Assembly: GCF_027587195.1 (NCBI RefSeq)
Contig: NZ_JAPDDP010000027.1
Coordinates: 1 to 64,000, forward strand
Direction of reading: 5' to 3'
DNA: 64,000 nt
From: Solirubrobacter phytolaccae
Lineage (GTDB): Bacteria; Actinomycetota; Thermoleophilia; Solirubrobacterales; Solirubrobacteraceae
A model generated the notes under the pieces. It saw only the letters and a list, made by a program, of their open reading frames with translations, did not search any database and was not told where the DNA came from. Made by a program: the position numbers and the translations under genes. Every line of letters starts with the position of its first letter. Position 1 is the stretch's first letter. Of this stretch, positions 13,519 to 52,290 are shown one piece after another.

Positions 13519-13734
13519 ATGGCCAGACACCAGCCCGCGGGCCGACAGCACGCCGGCGAGCCACCGCCGCCGAAGGTGACCATGCGGTTCGACGCGGCCA
13601 CGGGACGCTTCGTGCCCGTCGAGGAGCCGCGCGAGACGACGCCGACCACCGAGGCCGCGGAGCGCCCGCCCACGCCGGACGATCCGCGCCCCGCCGCCTA
13701 TCGCAACATCCCGCCGTTCGGCGGCGCCGTCTAG
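13519..13734 (+). CDS. Small proline-rich hypothetical protein
   Basis: 71 residues, Pro- and acid-rich, ending RNIPPFGGAV. The stretch MRFDAATGRFVPVEEP looks like a short conserved motif rather than random shadow coding. The ATG comes 10 bases after the hydrolase stop; TAGAGT (13506-13511) could be a -10 for a leaderless message. The stop codon shares CTAG with the stop of the opposing gene. No function can be given. Confidence 0.5.
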   Translation: MARHQPAGRQHAGEPPPPKVTMRFDAATGRFVPVEEPRETTPTTEAAERPPTPDDPRPAAYRNIPPFGGAV

Positions 13735-14738
13735 CGCGCAGTCACTTTCCCGCTCGTGATGAGCTTGCCGTCCGCGTGCACGCGGACGGTCAGGTTGCCG
13801 CGCCGCACCGGCGCCGTGATCGCCGTCGTGCCGGCCTTGGCCAGGAACGTGGTCGTGAACGCCTTCTTGCCGCCGCCGGACACCTTCACCGCGACCTTGC
13901 ACGGCGCCGCGCAGGTGATCCGGCCGAGGCTGAGCTTGCCCTTGGCCCGCAGCGCGCGTTGGCGCAGCGTCACCGTGGGCGCGGGAAGGGGCGGAGCGAC
14001 CTTGTCGAGCAGCACCCCGGTCACCGGCGTCCCGAGCGGGCCGACGGGCGCCGACACGGCGCGCAACGCCGACGGCGCCGAGAGGTCGTGGGGGTACGTC
14101 GTGCCCCACAGCAGCGGGACCGGCATCGGCAGCCCGCGCCGGTCCTTGGGCACGCGTTGCTCGGTCACGAACAGGTAGCGCCCCGCGAAGGCGGCGGGGA
14201 TGCCGGCCACACCGCCATAGCTGATGGCCGTGCCCGGGGTGACGTCGACGCACGGCACGGGGCAGCCCTGGATCTGCGGCAGGTACAGGCAGCCGGTGCC
14301 CTCGGGCGTCAGGCACGCGCTCAGGACCTGCGCGCTGAGGTCGTCGAGCCAGCCGCCCGTCCACGTGCCGTCGACCGCGAGCGCGTCACCGGTGGCGAAG
14401 AGCCGGCCGGTGATGGTCGGCGGTGCCGTGCGCTGCACCTGCCCCCGCCACGTCGGGCTGCGCTCGAGCACCGCGCCGTCGCGGCGGAGCTCGAACGTCG
14501 TCCCCGCCGGGGTGTCGCCCGGTTCATAGTCGGCCGGACCGGTCGCGGCGAACGTGCAGGGACCGCCGTCCGCCGGGCACGCGAACACCTCGTACGGGTG
14601 CCCGGGTGTGGTCAGGTAGTCCAGCCGGACCTTGGGATTTCCGTCGGAGGCCAGGTCCCAATGGGCCTGGGCGGCAGCGGGCACAAGCAGGGCGGCGACC
14701 GCCGCCGCGAGCAGGGCGACACGGAGCATGAGCGCCAC
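13731..14738 (-). CDS. Secreted protein, paralogue of the 20313-21263 product
   Basis: A 335-residue exported protein (GTG 14738; ATG 14729 also possible) with signal MLRVALLAAAVAALLVPAAAQA. The mature part has a cysteine-paired beta-rich core (FACPADGGPCTFAA, ACLTPEGTGCLYLP, GCPVPCVDV) and a C-terminal 85-residue domain (LSLGRITCAAPCKVAVKVSG, then TTAITAPVRRGNLTVRVHADGK). The protein at 20313-21263 has the same order: FVCPPGGTPC, DRRGIPVPV, LRLGSVTCPARCEVAVTVVG, TVRVYVDGR. The two flank the giant ThuA protein gene on the same strand. The tail domain resembles stress-protein-like Ig modules of Solirubrobacterales; function unknown. Confidence 0.8.
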   Translation of the reverse strand: MALMLRVALLAAAVAALLVPAAAQAHWDLASDGNPKVRLDYLTTPGHPYEVFACPADGGPCTFAATGPADYEPGDTPAGTTFELRRDGAVLERSPTWRGQVQRTAPPTITGRLFATGDALAVDGTWTGGWLDDLSAQVLSACLTPEGTGCLYLPQIQGCPVPCVDVTPGTAISYGGVAGIPAAFAGRYLFVTEQRVPKDRRGLPMPVPLLWGTTYPHDLSAPSALRAVSAPVGPLGTPVTGVLLDKVAPPLPAPTVTLRQRALRAKGKLSLGRITCAAPCKVAVKVSGGGKKAFTTTFLAKAGTTAITAPVRRGNLTVRVHADGKLITSGKVTAR

Positions 14739-14835: not shown

Positions 14836-17800
14836 CTACGGGGTGGTGGTGCTCAGGGTGAACACCAGCGTGGTGCTGTAGCGGCCCGACCGCAGCGCGT
14901 CGCTCTCGGCGATCGACTGCTGGAACGCGAGGTCCACGGTGGTCTTGCCGACCGGGCCCGTCCAGCTGACGAGCGCGGACGGGATGCCCTGCCACTGACC
15001 CGTGCCCGCCTTGACCTGCAGCGGCTTCGGCAGCGAGTAGGTGCCGTTGGTCAGGTAGCCGGTCTTCGCCGCACCCGGATCGTTCACGCTCAGCGCCGCG
15101 TCGCCGGCCGTCGAGACGACCGTCGCCTGGGTGGTGGCCGTGTAGTCACGGGTGACGCCGGGCACGAACGTCGGGAACGTCGCCGTCGTGCCGAGCGTGA
15201 GCCCGAGCGTCGGCGGCACGTCGCTGCCGAGCTCGAACGGCGCGGTGACCGCCGCGCCCTCGACGGTCACGACGACCGTCTTCTCGGCGGTGAGCTTGCC
15301 GTCGGACACCGTCACCTTGGCCGTGTAGGTCCCGGCCGTGGCGAACGTGGTCGTCGGGTTCTTCACCGTCGAGTCGACCGTGCCGTTGCCGTCGAGGTCC
15401 CACGCGTACGTGAGCGTGTCCCCGTCCGGATCGGTGGCCGTGACGTCGTACTGCGGCTTCAGCGGCGCCGTGCCCGTGTTGGGCGTGGCGGTCGCGGCCG
15501 AGATCACCGGGGCACGGTTGGCCGGAACGCCGCTTCCGAGACGGAAGAAGTCGAACCGCGCCGGCTGGCCGTTGCCGTGGTAGCCGGCGATGCCGATCTT
15601 GGCGCCCGCCAGCGAAGCCAGCGGCTTGCCGATGCTGAACGCCGTCCACGTGACGCCGTCCATCGACCACGCGGCAGAGACGTTGGTGCCGTCGCTGCTC
15701 ATCTTCAGCCACACGCCGGTCGTGTTCGCGTTCGCCGGCAGCGCGCCCGAGCGGTCACGGCTGGAGACGTTGGTCGTCGCCCCGTTGATGTCCTGACCGA
15801 ACTCGATCCGGAAGCCGTCGCCCTCCGTGTCCATGAGCATGAGCTTGAGGAAGTTCTTCGGGTCCTTGTACAGGACCAGGCCCCCCTGCTCGTACGAGCC
15901 GCCCTGGGCGATCTTGACCTTCGTGACGGCCTCCCACTTGCCGGCCTGCGGGGCCGGCTGGAGGAGGACGTTCTTGGCGGTGTCGACCCCGTTGTAGAGG
16001 TCGCCGTCGATGGCGTCGATCTGCAGCTCGCCGTCGACGACACGGGTCTCGCCCGCGACCGGACGCAGGACCGTGGTCCAGCGGCAGTCGCTGACCGAGG
16101 TGCCGTCGAACTCGTCGCTCGCCGTCGAGAGGTTGAACCACTCGAAGCTCGCCGGCGTGCCCGCCGTGCCGTTGAAGGCCGAGATGCCGAGCAGCGGGCT
16201 CGTCATCCGGTCCAGCGGCTGCGGCGTGCCGACCTGCGTGAAGTTCACGCCGTCACGCGAGAACCACACGGTCAGGTTCGTGCCGTCGCTCTGCATGCGC
16301 AGGTAGACGGTGTTGCCGGCGCTGGTCGGGAAGAGCGCCGAGCGCGCCACGTACGCGTCCGCACCCGACCGCAGCCCGACGAACTCGACGTTGCGGCCCT
16401 CCGCGGTGCGGATGAAGGCGGCCTTGTAGATCTCGGCAGTGCCCTGGTTGAGGATGATCGCCGCCTGCTCGCCGTTGGCGACCTGGGCGAGGCTGACCTT
16501 GGTGGTCGCCGTCCACACGCCGGCCGGGGCCGGGCGGGAGACGACGTTCTTGGCGGTCACGGCACCGGTCCACAGGTCACCGGCGACGGCGTTGATCTTC
16601 AGGACGCCGTTCTCGACCTTGTAGTTGGCCGCGTCCTCGCGGGTGATCGTCGGCCAGACCGTGCGGTCCAGCGTCGAGCCCGTGAAGGTGTCGGTGCCCG
16701 GGCAGGTGCCGAGGACCTCGATCGGGAAGGACTTCGAGGTCGCGCGACCGTCGGCGTCCGTGGCGGTCACCGTGGCGGTGTAGAGGCCGCGCTGGGTGTA
16801 CGTGTAGGACGCGGTGGCCGTGGTGGCCGTCGCGCCCGGGACGCCGAAGTTCCAGGCGTACGTGACCGCCTTGCCCTCCGGGTCGACGGCGCTGGCGGTG
16901 AAGTCGACCTTGAGCGGGGCCGCGCCGGTGAGCGGCGTGGCGGTCGCGGTCAGGTTCGGAGCCGCGTTGCCGTTGGCGCCCGGACCGTTGAACGTGAGCT
17001 CGTCGATGTCGAAGCCGGTCGTGGCCGCGACGACGTAGAGGTCACGCGTGCCGCCCGGATCGGTGATCGCGGCCGGCGCCTGCACCAGGTACTGCTCCCA
17101 GTCGCCGGAGGCGGTGACCGGGACGTTCGCGACCAGCGGGCCGGTCGGGGAGTCCGCGTGCAGCTCGATGCGGCCGGCGGCCGTGCCGCTGGTGCGGAAC
17201 GTGACGCTGTCGATGCCGACCATGTTGATCTTGTCGAAGCGCAGGTAGTCGCCCACGTCGGTGTAGCCCATGCGGCCGTTGCCACCCGCGCCGCTGGCGG
17301 CGAGGTTCGGCGTGAAGCCGCTGTTGACGTCGGCCTGCTCGCCCTGGAGCGTCTTCCACTCGAGCTCGACCTGGTTGGAGCTGGTCAGCTCCAGGCCGGT
17401 CGTCTTGTCCGTGTACTGGGCCGAGACGATGTACCAGACGTGCTGGGTCTTGTCCTCCCAGGCCGCCGGGATCGTGAACTCGCCCGAGCAGCCGGTCAGC
17501 GACTGGTCACCGTGCGAGTGGTCGTTGTGGCCGAGCGCGGTGTTGACGAGGACCTTCGAGCAGTCGATCGTCCCGTCCTCGGGATCGGTGACCGTGACCG
17601 TGTACTTGATCTTGTCGCCGTACTCGAAGAACGCGCCCTGCGCCGGCAGGTTGACCTTCACCGTCGGAGCGGTGTTGCCCGCGGTGATGTTGAAGGAGTC
17701 GAACGCCTCCTGGCCGGTGGCGTCCTTGATCGTCAAGGTCGCCGTGCGCTTGCCCGCCGTCGTGTAGGTGTACGTCGGGCTGATGGCCGTCGAGTCCGTG

Positions 17801-20145
17801 GTGCCGTTGCCGTCGAAGTCCCACGCGTACGTGAGCGGCGTGCCGTCCGGGTCGAGGGAGCCCTCGGCCGAGAACTTGACCGTCAGCGGCGCCGGGCCGG
17901 ACGTCTTGTCGGCCGTGGCCTTGACGATCGGCGAGCGGGCGCCCTGGACGTAGTCGATCCGGTAGACCGCCGAGTTCGCGTCGCCCTGGAAGAAGCCGCC
18001 CGTGCCGTAGTCGAGCACGTACAGCGCGCCGTCCGGGCCGAACTGCATGTCGATCGGCTGCTTGATCGGGAAGCCCTGGAACCAGGTCTCGACCGTCGGG
18101 AACGTCAGGTCGGCGGTGCCGCCGGTGAACGTCTTGATCCACGCGCGGCCGTACTCGTAGGCGAAGTTCTTGCCGTCGAAGTAGGCGGGGAACTTCGTCG
18201 TGGACGGGTTGGCGGCGTTGTACTGGTAGGTCGGGCCGCCCATCGGGGACTCCGAGCCCGAGCCGAACTCGGGGATCGAGCCGCCGTCGTAGTCGATCCA
18301 GGCCGGGACGGCCGCGGGGATGTCGACGAGGCCGGTGTTGAAGCGCGACTCGTTCTTGAGCGCGGCGCAGTTGAACTTGCCGCCGGTCTGCGTGCCGAAG
18401 TCGTAGTCGTTGTAGGCCTGGTTCTTGCCGATGCAGTAAGGCCAGCCGTAGTTGCCGGGCTGCTTGATCAGGTTGAACTCGACCAGGCCGCCCGGGCCGC
18501 GGTTCGCGTTGGCGGCGCCGGCGTCGGGGCCGTACTCGCCGAGGTAGATGTAGCCGGTCTTCTTGTCGACCGAGAAGCGGAACGGGTTGCGGAAGCCCAT
18601 GGCGTAGATCTCGGGCTTGGTGCCCATCGTGCCGGGCGTGAACATGTTGCCGGCCGGGATCGTGTAGGTGCCGTCCTCGGCGACCTTGATCCGGAGCACC
18701 TTGCCGCGGAGGTCGTTCGTGTTGCCGGCGGTGCGGCGCGCGTCGAACGCGGGGTTCTTGTTCGCGCGGTCGTCGAGCGGCGCGTAGCCGTCGGACGAGA
18801 ACGGGTTGGAGTCGTCGCCCGTGACGACGTACAGGTTGCCCTGCGCGTCGAAGTCCATGTCGCCGCCGACGTGGCAGCACTGGCCGCGGTCGGTCGGGAT
18901 CTGGAGGATCTTCTGCTCGGACGCGAGGTCGAGCTTGTTGTCGTCACCGAGCTTGAAGCGCGAGACCTGGTTGTAGCCCTTGTACGGCGCGAACGCGGCG
19001 TCGTTGCCGTCGGTCGGCGCGTCGGTCAGCGGCGTGGTCAGGCGCGGGGCGTAGAAGAGGTAGACCCACTTGTTCTGCGTGAAGTTGGGGTCGACCGCGA
19101 CGCCCTGCAGGCCGTCCTCGTCGTGCGAGTAGACGTTGATCGTCGCGGCCAGCGAGGTGACCGAGTTCGGCGTCGTGATGAAGACGCGGCCGTCACGGGC
19201 GGTGTGCAGGACGCGGCGGTCCGGCAGCACGTCGAGGGAGATCGGCTCGCCGATCTTGTCGGCGCCCTTGGCCAGCGTGGCGATCTCGAAGTCGTCCGTG
19301 GACGGGGTGCGCTGGCGCTCCGGCCCGCAGTCCGCGTCGACGTTCTTGGCGGCGGTCTTCAGGCCACCGAGGAGGTGCTTGAGCGCGTCCGGCTCGGAGA
19401 AGGTCGCCTGCGTGTGGCCGATGCCCGTGTACCAGGCGCGGCCACCGTCGAAGTTGGTGCACCAGGCGATCGGGTGGTCGTCGGCCGCGGCGGAGTCGTC
19501 CACCTCGTCGTAGGTCGACTCGTCGACCGTCGCCAGAACGTGGACGCCGCTCGTGCGCGGCGAGTAGTCCGGGATGTTCGGCTGGTTGCCGTTGACCACC
19601 GGGTTGTTCGGCTTCTGGAAGTTGTACCACTCGTCATTGCGCGTCCAGGCGGCCGGGATGCCCGTCGTGGAGGGCTCGTCGCCGTCCTCGATGCGGATCG
19701 TCGCCTGCGGCGTGCCGTTCGGGTGGTTGCGGAAGTACGCGCCCACCATCTGGCCGTAGTAGGGCCACGTGTACTCGGTGTCCGAGGCGGCGTGGACGCC
19801 GACCCAGCCGCCACCGGCGTGCATGTAGCGCTCGAACGCGTCCTGCTGGTCCTTGTTGAGGATGTCGCCCGTCGTCGACATGAAGACGATGACGTCGTAC
19901 TGGGCGAGGTTCGCATCGGTGAAGACGGCCGCGTCCTCGCTGGCGTCGACCGTGAAGTTGTTTTCCGTCCCGAGCTTCTGGATCGCCGCGATGCCCTGCG
20001 GGATCGAGTCGTGACGGAAGCCGGCGGTCTTCGAGAAGACCAGCACCTTGGACAGCGGATCAGCCGCGTGCGCGGGCGCCGCGCTGAACGCGCAGGCGAG
20101 AATGGCAACGAGCAGTGCAACGACTGCTCCACCTCTGGAACGCAA
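14836..20145 (-). CDS. Giant secreted multidomain protein: ThuA - sugar dehydrogenase propeller - PKD - CBM6 - PKD - two ConA-like - PKD
   Basis: 1769 residues from TTG 20145, chosen because AGGAGGAG lies 7 bases upstream; the longer GTG 20175 would put this site inside the gene. A signal peptide ends at APAHA. Order: ThuA-like domain (VLVFSKTAGFRHDSI...GHTQATF, about 30-270); a glucose/sorbosone-dehydrogenase six-bladed propeller (ISLDVLPDRRVLHTARDGRV, GQCCHVGGDMDFD, YLGEYGPDAG, about 285-740); PKD (PLTYAWDFDGNGTTDST); an Ig-like region; CBM6-like (NGRMGYTDVGDYLRFDKI); PKD (VTYAWNFG); two concanavalin-like domains of about 180 residues sharing the PxGxWxAxTKV pattern; a last PKD (LTYAWDLDGNGTVDST); and a final strand-rich domain. 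It is probably an extracellular enzyme attacking a polysaccharide-linked sugar, but no substrate can be read. Confidence 0.88.
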   Translation of the reverse strand: MRSRGGAVVALLVAILACAFSAAPAHAADPLSKVLVFSKTAGFRHDSIPQGIAAIQKLGTENNFTVDASEDAAVFTDANLAQYDVIVFMSTTGDILNKDQQDAFERYMHAGGGWVGVHAASDTEYTWPYYGQMVGAYFRNHPNGTPQATIRIEDGDEPSTTGIPAAWTRNDEWYNFQKPNNPVVNGNQPNIPDYSPRTSGVHVLATVDESTYDEVDDSAAADDHPIAWCTNFDGGRAWYTGIGHTQATFSEPDALKHLLGGLKTAAKNVDADCGPERQRTPSTDDFEIATLAKGADKIGEPISLDVLPDRRVLHTARDGRVFITTPNSVTSLAATINVYSHDEDGLQGVAVDPNFTQNKWVYLFYAPRLTTPLTDAPTDGNDAAFAPYKGYNQVSRFKLGDDNKLDLASEQKILQIPTDRGQCCHVGGDMDFDAQGNLYVVTGDDSNPFSSDGYAPLDDRANKNPAFDARRTAGNTNDLRGKVLRIKVAEDGTYTIPAGNMFTPGTMGTKPEIYAMGFRNPFRFSVDKKTGYIYLGEYGPDAGAANANRGPGGLVEFNLIKQPGNYGWPYCIGKNQAYNDYDFGTQTGGKFNCAALKNESRFNTGLVDIPAAVPAWIDYDGGSIPEFGSGSESPMGGPTYQYNAANPSTTKFPAYFDGKNFAYEYGRAWIKTFTGGTADLTFPTVETWFQGFPIKQPIDMQFGPDGALYVLDYGTGGFFQGDANSAVYRIDYVQGARSPIVKATADKTSGPAPLTVKFSAEGSLDPDGTPLTYAWDFDGNGTTDSTAISPTYTYTTAGKRTATLTIKDATGQEAFDSFNITAGNTAPTVKVNLPAQGAFFEYGDKIKYTVTVTDPEDGTIDCSKVLVNTALGHNDHSHGDQSLTGCSGEFTIPAAWEDKTQHVWYIVSAQYTDKTTGLELTSSNQVELEWKTLQGEQADVNSGFTPNLAASGAGGNGRMGYTDVGDYLRFDKINMVGIDSVTFRTSGTAAGRIELHADSPTGPLVANVPVTASGDWEQYLVQAPAAITDPGGTRDLYVVAATTGFDIDELTFNGPGANGNAAPNLTATATPLTGAAPLKVDFTASAVDPEGKAVTYAWNFGVPGATATTATASYTYTQRGLYTATVTATDADGRATSKSFPIEVLGTCPGTDTFTGSTLDRTVWPTITREDAANYKVENGVLKINAVAGDLWTGAVTAKNVVSRPAPAGVWTATTKVSLAQVANGEQAAIILNQGTAEIYKAAFIRTAEGRNVEFVGLRSGADAYVARSALFPTSAGNTVYLRMQSDGTNLTVWFSRDGVNFTQVGTPQPLDRMTSPLLGISAFNGTAGTPASFEWFNLSTASDEFDGTSVSDCRWTTVLRPVAGETRVVDGELQIDAIDGDLYNGVDTAKNVLLQPAPQAGKWEAVTKVKIAQGGSYEQGGLVLYKDPKNFLKLMLMDTEGDGFRIEFGQDINGATTNVSSRDRSGALPANANTTGVWLKMSSDGTNVSAAWSMDGVTWTAFSIGKPLASLAGAKIGIAGYHGNGQPARFDFFRLGSGVPANRAPVISAATATPNTGTAPLKPQYDVTATDPDGDTLTYAWDLDGNGTVDSTVKNPTTTFATAGTYTAKVTVSDGKLTAEKTVVVTVEGAAVTAPFELGSDVPPTLGLTLGTTATFPTFVPGVTRDYTATTQATVVSTAGDAALSVNDPGAAKTGYLTNGTYSLPKPLQVKAGTGQWQGIPSALVSWTGPVGKTTVDLAFQQSIAESDALRSGRYSTTLVFTLSTTTP

Positions 20146-20166
20146 GAAGACTCTCCTCCTCGATTG

Positions 20167-20192
20167 CGCGTCCACGAATCCTTGTGGACGCG
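20167..20192. promoter_or_regulatory. Inverted repeat in the leader of the giant gene
   Basis: CGCGTCCAC and GTGGACGCG (perfect 9-bp arms, 8-base loop) lie just upstream of the AGGAGGAG site of the 14836-20145 gene. In RNA it forms a hairpin that ends about 6 bases before that site, so it may tune translation or mRNA stability. It also covers the alternative GTG start. Confidence 0.5.
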
Positions 20193-20312: not shown

Positions 20313-21263
20313 TCAGCGTGCGACGACACGGATCGTGCGTTCGAGGCGCCCGTCGACGTAGACGCGGACGGTCAGCTTGCCGCTGCGGTAGGGAGCCGCG
20401 ATCGCCTTCGTGCCCTCGGCATGGAAGCCGGATTCGTGCTTGCGCTTGCCGCCGCCGACGACGGTCACCGCGACCTCGCAGCGGGCGGGGCAGGTCACGC
20501 TCCCGAGCCGGAGCTTGCCGTCGAGGCGGAACGGCCGCTCGCGCAGCGTGAGCGTGAACGCGGGCTTGATCGGCCCGAGCGGCGCGGACAGCTGCGTTCG
20601 CGGTTCGGGCTTGAAGTCCCACGGACGGTCGTCGTTCCACGGCCCCGGCTTCGCGATCACGGGAACGGGGATCCCCCGCCGGTCGCTGGGGGACGGGTCC
20701 TGGCTCACGAACAGGAAGAAGCCCGCGAGCGCATCCGGGATGGGACGGCCGTCGGACCGGCGGTCCGTGATCGTGTCGCAGGCGGAGCCGCACGCCCTGA
20801 GGTAAGCGGGCAACGAGTGGCAGCCGGTCGCGGTCGTCGTCCGGCAGGCGAACACGCGGATCTCGTTCCGGGTGTCGCCCCATCCGCCCTGCCAGGTTCC
20901 GGCCGTCCACACGGCCCGGGCACGGGCCACGGCCGGGCCGGTGATCGCGGGCGGCGTCGCCGCCGTGACCTGGCCCTGCCACGCCGGGCTCCGATCGGTC
21001 CCCAGCTCAGCCGTCCGCACCTCGAACGTCGTGCCCACCGCGGTCTCACCGGGCGCGAAGGCCCTGCGGTCGTGCTCGCTCGTGTTCCAGCCGCCCTCCA
21101 CGCACGGCGTGCCGCCGGGCGGGCAGACGAAGACCTGATCCTGGCTGCCGGTGTGCGTCGTGATCAGCGGCTGACCGTCGGCGGTCAGCCGCCAGGCGGC
21201 GTCAGCGGAGGCGGGTAGGGCAAGGGCGACGAGCAGCGCCGCGAGGAGCACGCGTCCAGGCAT
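20313..21263 (-). CDS. Secreted protein, paralogue of the 13731-14738 product
   Basis: A 316-residue exported protein (ATG 21263) with signal MPGRVLLAALLVALALPASADA. It shares the domain order, cysteine pairs and C-terminal domain of the 13731-14738 product (for example TFEVRTAELGTDRSPAWQGQV against TFELRRDGAVLERSPTWRGQV). It lies upstream of the giant ThuA gene on the same strand, with 167 bases of promoter-like DNA between. A small hairpin (GGAAAGC-GUUU-GCUUCC on the minus strand, 20293-20309) directly follows its stop and may end transcription. Function unknown; it may partner the giant enzyme. Confidence 0.82.
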   Translation of the reverse strand: MPGRVLLAALLVALALPASADAAWRLTADGQPLITTHTGSQDQVFVCPPGGTPCVEGGWNTSEHDRRAFAPGETAVGTTFEVRTAELGTDRSPAWQGQVTAATPPAITGPAVARARAVWTAGTWQGGWGDTRNEIRVFACRTTTATGCHSLPAYLRACGSACDTITDRRSDGRPIPDALAGFFLFVSQDPSPSDRRGIPVPVIAKPGPWNDDRPWDFKPEPRTQLSAPLGPIKPAFTLTLRERPFRLDGKLRLGSVTCPARCEVAVTVVGGGKRKHESGFHAEGTKAIAAPYRSGKLTVRVYVDGRLERTIRVVAR

Positions 21264-37278: not shown

Positions 37279-44525
<7,247 letters not shown>

Positions 44526-47670: not shown

Positions 47671-50600
47671 ATGACCCTCACCCGCCGCCTTCGTGTCTTG
47701 CTGGCCTGTGCGGCCGCGCTCGTCCTGGCTCCCAGTGCCGCCCACGCGGCGACGATCACCTCCACGACCTCCGGTGACTGGGACGATCCAGCCACCTGGG
47801 CCGGAGGCGTCGTCCCGGGCTCATCGGACGCGGTCGTCGTCGACGACGCGGTCACGCTGACCGGCGACGTGACGGTCGCGGAGGTCACGGTCAACGGCGG
47901 CGCCATGCTCACGCTCGATGGCTCGCGGCTGACCAGCAGCGGCGACGTCTCCCTGCTCGGCGACTCCTACACCACCTCGTGGCTGACGGACGGCCCGCTC
48001 GACGTCGCCGGCGACCTGCTCATCCAGAACACCGCGATCTCGAACGCGACGATCACCGCCGCCGGCGGCAACACCGAGTTCAGCGGCCCGCTCCCCGGTG
48101 ACACGGAGGCGTCGTCGTTCTGGACGAACTCGACCTTCACGCAGAACTTCGGCGGGGTGACGTTCAGCGGCCACCGGTTGGCCGGCGCGGTGGACCCGGT
48201 GCTCAACGACGCCAACCTCACCGTGCGCGGCGTCAACGACCTTGACGGGCGCCAGCTCACGCTCACCGGCTGGGGCGGCGTGTTCTTCGAGCCGACCGCC
48301 GTGACGGGGATCGGCGGCGCGCCCATGCTCAACGTCGGCGCGCTCACCGTCAGCGGCATGCACCAGACGACCGTCGACTGGTCGGGCATCGTCGGCGGCG
48401 CCGCGGACACCGACCGCGTGAACCTGATCGCGGCCGCGGCCGGTGACGCGACCGACCTCATCTACAGCAGCGCCGGCAGCACCACGTTCGGCGGTCCGCT
48501 CACCGGCGAGTCGCTGTACGTGACCTATTCCGGCAACCCGCGCCCCGCGGCCAACCCGCTGCCGTCCGTGTCCTCGTCCAGCAGCCTGCCCGGGCACGCG
48601 GAGGAGGGCGACACGATCACCTGCGACCCGGGCACGTGGACGCCGGACGACACGAAGGTCTATTCCTGGGCATCCGACGGCAACGAGATCAGCGGCGAGA
48701 CCGGAAGCACGTTCGAGGTCACGAGCGCCCAGCTCACGACCGACATCACCTGCACGGTCTCCGTCACCGTCAACGGCGTCACCGGCACTGAGGAGTCCAG
48801 CAACGCGGTCCACGCCGACGTCGCGCCGGGCAACATCCTCGAGCCCGAGGTGTCCCCGACGACCGCTGCGGTCGGCGACGTCCTGACCTGCGACGAGGGC
48901 CTGTGGTCCGCGGTCTCGCCGAGCTACGCCTACACGTGGGAGCGCGACGGCGTGACGATCGGCGGCGCCACGGCGCGGACCTACACGACGGTGAGCGCCG
49001 ACGGCGACACCGACGTCACCTGCTCGGTCGTGGCCACCGACGGCCTCGCGAGCTCGGCCCCGGTGCAGTCGATCACGGCCGCGGCGGTCGCCGGCGGCCC
49101 GAGCGCGACCACGCCGCCGTCGGCGACGAGCACCCGCACCCCGACGAACCGCGCCACGACGGGCGACGTGATCACCTGCGACCCGGGCGTGTGGAACCCG
49201 GACGGCGCGAAGGCCTACGCCTGGAAGCGCAACGGCACGCCGATCGCCGGCGCGACCGCCACCACGTACACGGTCGTCGTCGCCGACCTCGGCACGGACC
49301 TCAAGTGCGCCGTGACGGTGACCGCGAGCGGCGAGAGCGGCAGCGCCGACTCCGCCGCGGTGACGGTCGTCGCCACGCCCACCAACTCCGTCGCCCCCGC
49401 GATCACCGGCACGTACGCCGCGGGCAAGGGCACGCCGGGCGAGCCGCTCACCTGTGGGGCGGGCACCTGGACCGGCAGCCCGACATACGGCTACTCGTGG
49501 AAGCGCGGCGCGACCGAAGTCGCCACGACGAGCGCCTACACCCCCGTCGGCGGCGACGTCGGCGCCACGCTCACCTGCACGGTGACCGCGACCGTCAACA
49601 CGATCGCCGGCGCGCCCGCGACCACGGCCGGCGTCACGATCTTCGCCACGCCCGGGAACACGACGGCGCCCGCGATCACCGGCACGCCCGTCGTCGGCAA
49701 GACACGGCTCGGTCTGGCACTGAGCTGCACCCCGGGCACGTGGACCGGCGGCCCGACGTTCACCTACGCGTGGGAGCGCGACGGCACGCCGATCGGCGGC
49801 GCGACGGCCGCCACCTACACGCCGGCCGGCGCCGACCTGAACACCGAGCTGACCTGCGTCGTCTCCGCCACGGCCAACGGCCTCACCACCCTGGCGACCA
49901 CGACCGGCGTCGACGTCGTCGCGGTCGCCGAGAACACGACGCCGCCGGCCGTCACCGGCACCCACGCCACCGGCAAGGGCACCCCGGGCGAGCAGCTCAC
50001 CTGCGGCACGGGCGCCTGGACGCTGAGCGCGACGTACAGCTTCTCGTGGAAGCGCGGCACCACCGAGGTCGCGACCATGAGCACCTACACGCCCGTCCTC
50101 GCCGACGTCGGCGCGACGCTCACGTGCGCCGTCACCGCCGACGCCAACGGCATCCCGAGCGCGCCGGCCGCGTCCACCGGCGTGACGATCTTCGCCGCGC
50201 CCGAGAACACGACGGCCCCGGCGATCACCGGCACGCCCGTCGCGGGCAAGACGCGGCTCGGCCTGGCGCTCACCTGCGCCCCGGGCACCTGGACGCACGG
50301 CCCGGCGTTCACCTACGCGTGGGAGCGCGACGGCACGCCGATCGGCGGCGCGACGTCCGCCACGTACACGCCGGCCGGCGCCGACCTGAACACCGAGCTC
50401 ACGTGCACCGTCACGGGCGCGGCCAACGGCCTCACCGGCACGCCGGTCACGGCCACGGGCGTCGACGTCGTCGAGACGGCGGAGAACACCGTGGCGCCGT
50501 CGATTACCGGGACGCTCGCCGCGGCCAAGTCGCTGCCCGGAACGGCCCTGACCTGCGACGCGGGCACGTGGACCCTCAGCCCGACGCTCGACTACGCGTG

Positions 50601-52290
50601 GAAGCGTGGGTCGACGACGGTCGCGACCACTGGCACCTACACCCCGGTCGCCGCCGACGCGGGCGCCACGCTCACGTGCGAGGTCACCGGCACCGCCAAC
50701 GGCGTGCCGAGCGCGGCCGTCGCCTCGACCGGCGTCGCGGTCCTCCCGAACCCGGACAACACCGCGGCCCCGGCGCTCAGCGGCTCCGGCATCGTCGGTG
50801 AGGCGCTCACGTGCGCCACCGGCAGCTGGGCCGGCACCCCGGACCTGTTCGTGCGCTGGCTGCGCGGCGACACCGTCGTCGCGTCCGGCTCGAGCGTCTA
50901 CACGCTCGTCCGCGCCGACCGCAACGCCGAGCTGCGCTGCAAGGTGACGGCGACGACGCTGGGTGCCGAGCGCACGGCGAGCTCCGCGCCGGTGACGGTC
51001 AAGGCCGCCGCCCCGATCACCATCACCGAGCAGCCCGAGGCGGTCATCACGACCCGCGGCGCGCGCGTGGCCTACACGCTCGCGCCCGACGTCACGGTCA
51101 CCGGCTGCACGCTCAACGGCACAGCGCTCGCGTCCTGCGCCAGCCCGATCGCCCTGGACTCGCTGGCGAGCACGGCCGACCACGCGCTGGTCATCAACCT
51201 CCGCAACGAGTACGGCGAGGACGAGACGCGCACGGTCAACTTCGCCACCCGGGTCGCCGGCCCGTCGGTGGCGATCACCAACTGGCCGGAGTTCAACCGG
51301 GCCCCCCGGTTCAGGCTCCTGGCGCTGAAGTTCCGCGTCGACGCTGGGGCGCTGGTGGCCTGCACGTTCGACGGCCGGCCCGTCTCGTGCAGCGCCGCGG
51401 GCGCCGACCTGCTCGTGCCCCGCAGCGGCGTGCACGTGTTCGAGGTGACCGCCACCGACGTCCACGGCGGCACGGGCTCGGACAAGCGGACCCTCGAGGT
51501 CGTCGAGGTCGGCAGCATCCTCCCGGTGAAGGTGCGCGGCGTCGCCGGCAGCACGATCACGATCCCGTCGGTGGAGGACCTGCGTGGGCACACGTTCAAG
51601 GCCAACGTCAGCGGTGTCACCGTGGTGCCGATCGGCTCCGGCGACCTGTCCTGGGGCCTGCTGATCAAGCTGCCGGCCAAGCCGGGCAAGGTCCGCCTGG
51701 ACACGTTCCACCCGTCGGACCCGGTCAACGAGATCGGCAGGACCGTGATCGAGGTCACCCAGGAGGAGGCGACGACCGTCGACGAGACGGCCGGCGGCCT
51801 GATCGACGCGAACTCGCCGCTCACCTGCCCGAAGGGCGCGGCCGGCTCGTTCTATGTCTGGTACATCGACGGCAAGCTCGTGCGCACCGACACGAGCAAC
51901 GTGTTCCCGGCCAAGCTGCTGCCCAAGACCGGCGAGGTGTCGTGCGCGGTCAACGACCCCATCAAGGGGTTGTCGCCGCAGGTCAAGACGCTGATCGACA
52001 ACGACGTCCGGCTCGCGCTCAAGGTCGTGGACAACGCCCTCTCGTTCGTCGTCAGCAAGAAGGTCTGGGTCGAGTTCAAGGTCGCCCAGGTGACCTCCTA
52101 CGGCCAGTCGTCCAGCGCCAAGCCCGTGAAGGCCCGCTACACGACGCTCAAGACCAAGAAGCAGACGCTCCGCCGGGGTTGGACCCGGATCTCGTTGGGC
52201 CGCAAGCTGCCGAAGTCGGGCTACCGGGTCACGGTCAAGATCAAGCGCGGGAAGCGGTACAGCAAGCCGTTGGTCCTCAGCAAGGGCTGA
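47671..52290 (+). CDS. Large secreted protein with nine Ig-like modules
   Basis: 1539 residues. ATG 47671 follows GAAGGAG. The signal ends at AAHA. The N-terminal part (ATITSTTSGDWDDPATWAGG) has the start typical of G8/beta-helix domains with short-strand rungs to about residue 290. Nine Ig-like modules of about 91 residues follow, each with the pattern N-T-x-A-P-x-I-T-G...LTC-x-x-G-x-W...Y-x-W-x-R...L-x-C. The last 500 residues contain two cysteine-containing beta modules, then a unique domain ending in basic strands (KARYTTLKTKKQTLRRGW, YRVTVKIKRGKRYSKPLVL). It lacks the FecR-like module of the array proteins, so it is a separate surface-protein type. Confidence 0.85.
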   Translation: MTLTRRLRVLLACAAALVLAPSAAHAATITSTTSGDWDDPATWAGGVVPGSSDAVVVDDAVTLTGDVTVAEVTVNGGAMLTLDGSRLTSSGDVSLLGDSYTTSWLTDGPLDVAGDLLIQNTAISNATITAAGGNTEFSGPLPGDTEASSFWTNSTFTQNFGGVTFSGHRLAGAVDPVLNDANLTVRGVNDLDGRQLTLTGWGGVFFEPTAVTGIGGAPMLNVGALTVSGMHQTTVDWSGIVGGAADTDRVNLIAAAAGDATDLIYSSAGSTTFGGPLTGESLYVTYSGNPRPAANPLPSVSSSSSLPGHAEEGDTITCDPGTWTPDDTKVYSWASDGNEISGETGSTFEVTSAQLTTDITCTVSVTVNGVTGTEESSNAVHADVAPGNILEPEVSPTTAAVGDVLTCDEGLWSAVSPSYAYTWERDGVTIGGATARTYTTVSADGDTDVTCSVVATDGLASSAPVQSITAAAVAGGPSATTPPSATSTRTPTNRATTGDVITCDPGVWNPDGAKAYAWKRNGTPIAGATATTYTVVVADLGTDLKCAVTVTASGESGSADSAAVTVVATPTNSVAPAITGTYAAGKGTPGEPLTCGAGTWTGSPTYGYSWKRGATEVATTSAYTPVGGDVGATLTCTVTATVNTIAGAPATTAGVTIFATPGNTTAPAITGTPVVGKTRLGLALSCTPGTWTGGPTFTYAWERDGTPIGGATAATYTPAGADLNTELTCVVSATANGLTTLATTTGVDVVAVAENTTPPAVTGTHATGKGTPGEQLTCGTGAWTLSATYSFSWKRGTTEVATMSTYTPVLADVGATLTCAVTADANGIPSAPAASTGVTIFAAPENTTAPAITGTPVAGKTRLGLALTCAPGTWTHGPAFTYAWERDGTPIGGATSATYTPAGADLNTELTCTVTGAANGLTGTPVTATGVDVVETAENTVAPSITGTLAAAKSLPGTALTCDAGTWTLSPTLDYAWKRGSTTVATTGTYTPVAADAGATLTCEVTGTANGVPSAAVASTGVAVLPNPDNTAAPALSGSGIVGEALTCATGSWAGTPDLFVRWLRGDTVVASGSSVYTLVRADRNAELRCKVTATTLGAERTASSAPVTVKAAAPITITEQPEAVITTRGARVAYTLAPDVTVTGCTLNGTALASCASPIALDSLASTADHALVINLRNEYGEDETRTVNFATRVAGPSVAITNWPEFNRAPRFRLLALKFRVDAGALVACTFDGRPVSCSAAGADLLVPRSGVHVFEVTATDVHGGTGSDKRTLEVVEVGSILPVKVRGVAGSTITIPSVEDLRGHTFKANVSGVTVVPIGSGDLSWGLLIKLPAKPGKVRLDTFHPSDPVNEIGRTVIEVTQEEATTVDETAGGLIDANSPLTCPKGAAGSFYVWYIDGKLVRTDTSNVFPAKLLPKTGEVSCAVNDPIKGLSPQVKTLIDNDVRLALKVVDNALSFVVSKKVWVEFKVAQVTSYGQSSSAKPVKARYTTLKTKKQTLRRGWTRISLGRKLPKSGYRVTVKIKRGKRYSKPLVLSKG
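48543..51004 (+). repeat. Ig-module tandem repeat with a two-module (549-bp) higher-order period
   Basis: Nine in-frame units of about 273 bp. Units 4, 6 and 8 resemble each other, and units 5 and 7 resemble each other. Landmarks recur exactly 549 bases apart (the ACCTACGCGTGGGAGCGCGA block at about 49762 and 50311, and the GGCAAGGGCAC block at about 49423 and 49972), so a pair of modules was duplicated as one piece. Confidence 0.85.

What the first reader, a model, noticed from the sequence alone, without database searches (positions are those of the whole stretch)
14836..20145. 1769-residue ThuA-sugar-dehydrogenase fusion with PKD, CBM6 and two ConA-like domains
A ThuA-like domain, a GSDH-type propeller, three PKD domains, CBM6 and two concanavalin-like domains in one secreted chain look like a complete extracellular sugar-processing machine. 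ThuA and GSDH pairs occur in other bacteria, but the added tandem ConA domains and unique C-terminus are unusual.
Basis: partly seen in the sequence, partly recalled or inferred. Interest (0 to 1): 0.5.

Follow-up and report, generated by a model that had tools for sequence, protein, structure and literature searches.

The report
Shared surface anchor on sugar enzymes
The long secreted sugar-enzyme protein is real, but its head is of a type found in other bacteria; the surprise is its tail, an uncatalogued domain that sits at the very end of at least 144 mostly secreted proteins in this soil bacterium and probably holds them on the cell surface.

Summary
In detail: a 1769-residue secreted protein (TTG start at 20145, good ribosome site) carries ThuA, GSDH propeller, PKD, CBM6, PKD, two ConA-like domains and PKD. 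Its head is not unusual: ThuA-GSDH fusions occur in at least 9 of 295 other Actinomycetota genomes sampled, and ThuA is amplified in Solirubrobacter. The 'unique C-terminus' is the opposite of unique. Its last ~130 residues are a domain without credible Pfam or NCBIfam match that ends exactly at the stop codon of at least 144 genes of this genome (144 of 144), mostly behind Sec-like signals (103 of 110 tested), on rhamnosidases, peptidases, amidases, phosphatases and ThuA proteins. All 7 Solirubrobacter genomes searched carry many copies; the other 139 family genomes 0-3. AlphaFold gives a confident beta-sandwich (pLDDT 95.7) nearest to donor-strand pilins; one copy is followed by a WxLIP-like gene in six genomes. 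I read it as a WxL-like surface-retention module. It fails WxL membership tests; anchoring is untested.

The parts
14836..20145 (-). gene for the 1769-aa secreted ThuA-GSDH-PKD-CBM6-PKD-ConA-ConA-PKD-CTD protein; start TTG at 20145-20143
20153..20160 (-). ribosome binding site AGGAGGAG, 7 nt before the TTG
   Evidence: read directly
20065..20145 (-). Sec-type signal peptide, likely cleaved after ...APAHA (by eye)
   Evidence: read; crude rule applied to the carrier set
19357..20049 (-). ThuA domain (PF06283)
17947..19248 (-). GSDH-type beta-propeller (PF07995 matched over 18394-19248; the rest, to about 17947, is inferred); HVGG and RNP motifs present
17686..17934 (-). PKD domain 1
16987..17343 (-). 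CBM6
16732..16956 (-). PKD domain 2
16126..16722 (-). first ConA-like domain (GH43_C2/DUF1349; borders approximate, inferred)
   Evidence: one search reports two matched stretches; only the best has printed borders
15541..16119 (-). second ConA-like domain (GH43_C2)
15262..15441 (-). PKD domain 3 (K319L-like)
14839..15237 (-). C-terminal domain (CTD): uncatalogued, at least 144 copies in this genome, each ending at the stop codon

Best explanation
The protein is one of at least 144 proteins of this Solirubrobacter, mostly with export signals, that share one C-terminal domain, which I read as a surface-retention domain. Shown: gene, domain order, start, Sec-like signals on most carriers, the position of the CTD at the chain end, its amplification in the genus, and a confident beta-sandwich model. 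Inferred: after Sec export the CTD folds as a pilin-like Ig sandwich lacking its last strand and is held at the cell wall, completed or capped by a strand from a membrane-anchored WxLIP-like protein (gene found beside one CTD gene) or by direct wall binding, much as WxL domains hold proteins on Bacillota. The enzymes thus stay on the surface: CBM6 and the ConA domains bind polysaccharide, the propeller oxidises a sugar (probably with PQQ), ThuA acts on the same or the oxidised sugar, and the PKDs are spacers.
For: CTD ends exactly at the stop in 144 of 144 full-length copies: 110 distinct genes (118 of 118 significant hits before removing duplicates; 20 further internal rows in the same proteins all have independent E of 1 or worse) and 34 of 34 more; list. 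Sec-like signal in 103 of 110 carriers against 8 of 104 internal control stretches, by a crude rule. Carriers are diverse hydrolases and oxidoreductases. Amplified in 7 of 7 genus genomes, 0-3 copies in the other 139 family genomes. Model pLDDT 95.7, pTM 0.86; best PDB neighbours are donor-strand pilins (CsuA/B 6fqa_D Z 9.0, rmsd 2.8 over 120 residues). Six of six strong WxLIP-like genes lie directly downstream of a CTD gene on the same strand; the four read end in a hydrophobic, membrane-type helix (by eye). WxL + DUF916 pairs over the Pfam cut-offs exist in the same family (G612). In Bacillota, a WxLIP strand is predicted to fill a gap in WxL and complete its sandwich (PMC10599100, section 2.4 read).
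Against: The WxLIP-like gene was not found at E 1e-5 in 2 of 7 Solirubrobacter genomes (G119, G608; near-identical scores suggest close relatives), although both carry many CTDs, and it adjoins only one CTD gene per genome. Weaker WxLIP-like matches occur in 13 family genomes without a CTD match (against 41). The own-genome WxLIP-like protein scores below the Pfam cut-off (19.0 against 27.3 bits). Profile comparison of CTD with WxL aligns only the last strand, probability 12%, and 1.3% against a single WxL. No Foldseek hit reached E 0.001. The solved WxL structure 9i25 is not among the 50 listed neighbours. No wall-binding or localisation data exist.
Confidence: 0.55

Rival explanations
1. The CTD is an export or sorting signal read by a dedicated secretion machine and then removed, as in the type IX system of Bacteroidota.
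For: Strict C-terminal position with an invariant final Pro (110 of 110; 34 of 34), very diverse cargo, large copy number.
Against: 103 of 110 carriers have a Sec-like signal by a crude rule; type IX cargo also has one (recalled), so this is weak. S. deserti is described as Gram-stain positive (PMC10722151, passages). No NCBIfam sorting model is among the hits of 111 rows (best E 0.016, unrelated families).
Confidence: 0.13
2. The CTD is a polymerising pilin-like unit: CTD proteins join by donor-strand exchange into surface fibres or enzyme complexes, a cellulosome-like display without dockerins.
For: Nearest folds are fibre subunits: CfaB, Csu, FimA, TasA, TLP-1, CupE.
Against: Foldseek E-values only 0.003 or worse; donor-strand pilins usually offer a strand from a free N-terminus (recalled), whereas here the CTD follows large domains; chaperone-usher genes were not looked for.
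Confidence: 0.12
3. The CTD is a stabilising or polysaccharide-binding end domain spread by gene duplication, and the enzymes are released freely.
For: Beta-sandwich folds of this size often bind sugars (recalled); the domain is restricted to one family in the samples searched.
Against: A mere carbohydrate-binding module would not be expected at the exact C-terminus 144 of 144 times, nor on peptidases, amidases and phosphatases alike.
Confidence: 0.15
4. One reading: a one-off extracellular sugar machine with a unique C-terminus.
For: Domain order is right; GSDH motif positions are conserved.
Against: C-terminus recurs at least 143 times; paralogue of the whole chain at 45%; ThuA-GSDH fusions in at least 9 of 295 other phylum genomes sampled.
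Confidence: 0.05

Closest known systems
WxL domain (PF13731) with WxLIP (PF06030/PF11797) in Bacillota
   Same: Strictly C-terminal; beta-sandwich; similar last strand: CTD G-x-Y-x3-L-x-F-x-L-x4-P, WxL of G612 G-x-Y-x3-W-x-F-x-L-x3-P, WxL of Listeria innocua G-x-H-x3-I-x-W-x-L-x3-P; one CTD gene is followed by a secreted WxLIP-like protein with a membrane-type C-terminal helix.
   Different: No Trp-x-Leu motifs; ~130 rather than 160-190 residues; no Pfam WxL match (0 of 111 rows at E 10); at least 144 copies, many on enzymes, instead of a small/large WxL gene cluster; partner not found in 2 of 7 genomes.
Chaperone-usher and archaic (Csu, CfaB) pilins; TasA/TLP fibres
   Same: Nearest solved folds, Z up to 9.3.
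   Different: 7-18% identity in the 50 rows; CTD is a C-terminal module of large proteins; no Foldseek hit below E 0.001.
Actinomycetal ThuA-GSDH fusion proteins
   Same: ThuA and GSDH in one chain, full-length matches in at least 9 of 295 other phylum genomes sampled.
   Different: No CTD was found outside the family: 4 of 396 phylum genomes match, all in it (the two samples were drawn apart).
T9SS C-terminal domains (Bacteroidota)
   Same: A shared C-terminal Ig-like domain on many cargo proteins (recalled).
   Different: Different phylum, Gram-stain-positive genus, no sorting-model match.

Membership tests
WxL domain (PF13731) | Pfam profile match over cut-off | tested here: not met
   0 of 111 CTD rows match at E 10; a PF13731 scan of 15 genomes lists no CTD place in this genome
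WxL domain (PF13731) | two Trp-x-Leu motifs | tested here: not met
   CTD consensus has TAGDATLSV and LTFTL on what I take (by eye) as the comparable strands, no WxL; definition from PMC9772566 passages
WxL domain (PF13731) | always the C-terminal domain | tested here: met
   144 of 144
WxL domain (PF13731) | gene cluster with a DUF916/WxLIP protein | tested here: inconclusive
   6 of 6 strong WxLIP-like genes adjoin a CTD gene, but one per genome, below the Pfam cut-off in the two scanned, and none in 2 of 7 genus genomes
WxL domain (PF13731) | peptidoglycan binding | not testable with these tools
   needs a pull-down
Chaperone-usher/archaic pilin fold | incomplete Ig fold completed by a donor strand | tested here: inconclusive
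   fold similarity Z 7.5-9.3 in the listed rows, Foldseek E 0.003 at best; donor strand not modelled
Chaperone-usher/archaic pilin fold | chaperone and usher genes | not tested
   -
T9SS C-terminal domain | match to a curated sorting-domain model | tested here: not met
   no sorting model among the hits of 111 rows at E 10; that NCBIfam holds such models is recalled
ThuA (PF06283) | profile over cut-off | tested here: met
   250 bits, cut-off 33.4
GSDH / soluble PQQ sugar dehydrogenase (PF07995) | profile over cut-off | tested here: met
   125 bits, cut-off 25
GSDH / soluble PQQ sugar dehydrogenase (PF07995) | catalytic His and Arg-Asn of the PQQ pocket | tested here: inconclusive
   HVGG aligns with 3a9g and 7cdy, RNP with 2ism, 3a9g and 7cdy; that these are the PQQ residues is recalled from sGDH; the remaining pocket and calcium residues were not checked and the structure model failed
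TIGR03606 non-repeat PQQ dehydrogenase | curated cut-off | tested here: not met
   47.4 against 434.55 bits

The most novel reading that the evidence does not exclude
Probability: 0.33. Interest if true: 0.8.

Novelty: new variant of a known kind. Interest (0 to 1): 0.57.

Why it matters
If right, a genus of soil actinobacteria has a private way of keeping degradative enzymes on the cell, invisible to current annotation because neither Pfam nor NCBIfam has a matching profile. It marks in one stroke at least 144 candidate surface proteins, gives a possible tag for surface display in a Gram-stain-positive actinobacterium, and would join WxL domains and fibre-forming pilins into one idea of strand completion used for anchoring.

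Tried and rejected
Structure of the ThuA-GSDH head: AlphaFold on a 4-row alignment failed (pLDDT 41.3) and is not used. Foldseek of the CTD against viral models: nothing at E 0.001 or better. Sequence search of the PDB with the CTD profile: one hit, E 0.88. Profile comparison CTD-WxL: score 25.9 for the six-row WxL set and 22.2 for four rows; each beat 199 of 200 column shuffles. One shuffle in each set scored far higher (133.9 and 138.2); the first was re-run and looks like a numerical artefact of hhalign, 19 aligned columns at 21% identity; the second was not examined. Against a single WxL protein the probability was 1.3%. Only the last strand aligns, so I do not claim homology. Literature: WxL with Actinobacteria and DUF916, Solirubrobacter with C-terminal domain, Solirubrobacter with cell wall and surface protein, WxL with donor strand, 3-keto with ThuA, ThuA domain, 3-keto-disaccharide hydrolase (no paper) and Solirubrobacter with extracellular enzymes or comparative genomic: in these listings, only part of which were shown where hits were many, I saw no description of this domain. 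PMC10722151, the genus genome paper, has no occurrence of 'C-terminal' or 'ThuA' in its main text (term search). 9i25, a solved WxL domain, is not among the listed fold neighbours, which shows nothing either way.

Counting notes: alignment A1 has 111 rows but 110 distinct genes (L118 and L132:334-738 are one gene). Most rows were first chosen because their match reached the query's last residue, so the stop-codon test was repeated on the 34 copies that only the profile scan had shown. One search's domain table also held 20 internal rows, all insignificant (independent E 1 to 190). One search scored 150 of 215 first-look candidates and listed 148 matches; 144 are full-length, two are pieces of one further copy that also ends at the stop (L232), two are fragments. 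Copy numbers are therefore lower bounds. In some searches at most 27, 10 and 28 candidates per genome were scored; at most 19; three.

Full report
What was checked. The minus-strand frame 14836-20175 encodes 1779 codons from the first GTG. Pfam finds ThuA, GSDH, PKD, CBM6, PKD, two GH43_C2/ConA-like domains and PKD. Orthologues aligned over 1742-1780 columns exist in Solirubrobacter taibaiensis (91%), S. deserti and Solirubrobacter sp. CPCC 204708 (78%) and S. soli (70%), so the window very probably lies in that genus (the genome itself is unnamed).

The head is ordinary in kind. A profile of the ThuA-GSDH part finds matches in 25 of 296 phylum genomes; they span nearly the whole profile in one frame in 9 of the 295 other than this one (only three candidates per genome were scored, so this is a lower bound). 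Within the family, ThuA is amplified in the genus: 19 or more in six of seven genomes and 9 in the seventh, at most 2 in the other 139; this genome has 26 matches and 41 GSDH segments. A paralogue of the whole chain (45%, residues 5-1779) lies on another contig.

The tail is the finding. The own-genome search returned about a hundred places matching only the last 130-odd residues. I fetched 106 places whose match reached the query's end, and further ThuA loci. A profile search over all open frames of at least 80 codons in these stretches gave 118 proteins with a significant hit, each ending at the stop codon; 110 distinct genes remain after duplicates. A profile of them (A1) scanned against the whole genome gives 148 matches, 144 full-length. 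The 34 full-length copies not yet fetched were then taken: 34 of 34 end exactly at the stop. The consensus is VGGTVPATL-L-LG-PA-FGAF-PGV---YTA-T-ATV-STAGDATLSVSDP----GHLVNGAF-LPQPLQV...WTGPVSN--V--TFKQ-I-A-DALRTG-YSKTLTFTLSTT-P-stop, with Tyr, Leu, Gln, Leu, Gly, Tyr, Leu and the final Pro invariant in A1. No Pfam or NCBIfam family matches it credibly (best single-row hit E 0.0014 to SlpA_C, 1 of 111 rows).

Carriers. A crude Sec-signal rule fits 103 of 110 carriers, against 8 of 104 internal control stretches. Pfam on the parts before the tail (110 proteins in two batches) finds ThuA in 16, GSDH in 14, CBM6 in 13, M14 carboxypeptidase in 12, alpha-L-rhamnosidase in 7, 3-keto-disaccharide hydrolase in 6, S15 peptidase in at least 6 and amidase in at least 4; the tables list only the 25 commonest families per batch.

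Distribution. All 7 genus genomes reach the scored quota of 28 (107-227 first-look candidates, a loose count); 7 of the other 139 family genomes have 1-3 copies. In the order sample 8 of 151 genomes match, all in the family; in the phylum sample 4 of 396, all in the family. In two other genera a copy sits at the end of a protein of 410-419 residues (L147, L148).

Structure. AlphaFold on A1: pLDDT 95.7, pTM 0.86, seven strands. Foldseek's best PDB hits are donor-strand pilins, none at E 0.001 or better; the realignment gives Z up to 9.3, with CsuA/B 6fqa_D at Z 9.0, 2.8 A over 120 residues. Middling Z values are common, so this shows a fold class, not kinship. The seven-strand order fits a pilin-like Ig without strand G, but this is inference; I could not see coordinates.

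Link to WxL. In Bacillota, WxL domains are always C-terminal (PMC9772566, passages), are reported to bind peptidoglycan, and are predicted to be completed by a strand of the membrane protein WxLIP (PMC10599100, passages, section 2.4). Searching WxLIP (PF06030) in ten genomes gave weak hits, some beside CTD genes. A profile of two such proteins, each with a signal and a hydrophobic C-terminal helix (by eye), finds one strong gene in 5 of 7 Solirubrobacter genomes and in one other genus; 6 of 6 lie directly downstream of a CTD gene. Of the upstream genes, the own-genome one matches Metallophos (E 7.5e-7) and the other-genus one, cut at the locus edge, only at E 0.22; two more look alike by eye. 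This is one conserved gene pair, not six independent events. The same family holds WxL and DUF916 pairs over the Pfam cut-offs (G612; 25.8 bits against 25 and 43.2 against 27.3), and this genome has a small WxL-like gene, below the cut-off (21.8 bits), with a WxLIP-like neighbour (13.0 bits) next to a CTD gene (L164). Against the link: no WxL motifs, no profile match, only the last strand aligns, weaker WxLIP-like matches in 13 genomes without a CTD match, and two genus genomes without the partner.

Mechanism. Most likely the CTD keeps exported enzymes on the wall. Shown: signals, position, amplification, predicted fold. Inferred: wall retention; strand completion by a partner. For the enzyme itself, the propeller keeps HVGG and RNP at positions aligned with solved relatives; PQQ use, the substrate and what ThuA does remain inferred.

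Verdict. The tail domain is a new variant of C-terminal surface modules, not a WxL by test, though it may work like one.

Noticed in passing
window 13731-14738 and 20313-21263, both minus strand: Two secreted-looking paralogues (39.9% identical) flank the gene; neither has a Pfam family. In the four fetched orthologue loci a match at E 1e-20 is seen only in S. taibaiensis, better to the downstream one (55.6%).
   Followed up: partly
G000:C113:27928-41918 (L084, L037, L038, L040): Four CTD genes in 1004-1126-codon open frames stand in tandem.
   Followed up: no
L156 (G612:C22) and L165 (G612:C88): WxL and DUF916/WxLIP genes lie side by side in an actinobacterium; the passages I saw of the two WxL papers speak of Bacillota.
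   Followed up: partly
L164:895-2584 minus (G000:C136): A 213-aa WxL-like secreted protein with a WxLIP-like membrane protein, next to a CTD gene on the other strand.
   Followed up: partly
whole genome G000: 26 ThuA matches, at most 2 in any family genome outside the genus; six CTD carriers bear the 3-keto-disaccharide hydrolase domain, which hints at an extracellular 3-keto-sugar route.
   Followed up: partly
L230 and L231 (G000:C80:45131-45538, C66:109858-110265): Two very diverged CTD copies ending GSYRKVLLVTLSTD-P; one lies in an open frame of only 199 codons, so little more than the domain.
   Followed up: no
window 37279-43536 and 47671-52290, plus strand: Two giant proteins (2085 and 1539 codons) of repeated Ig-like domains (17 Big_13 stretches; 4 Ig_2 stretches); no CTD match is listed there.
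   Followed up: no
L023 (Marinicella marina): A ThuA-region match of 51% identity outside the actinobacteria.
   Followed up: no
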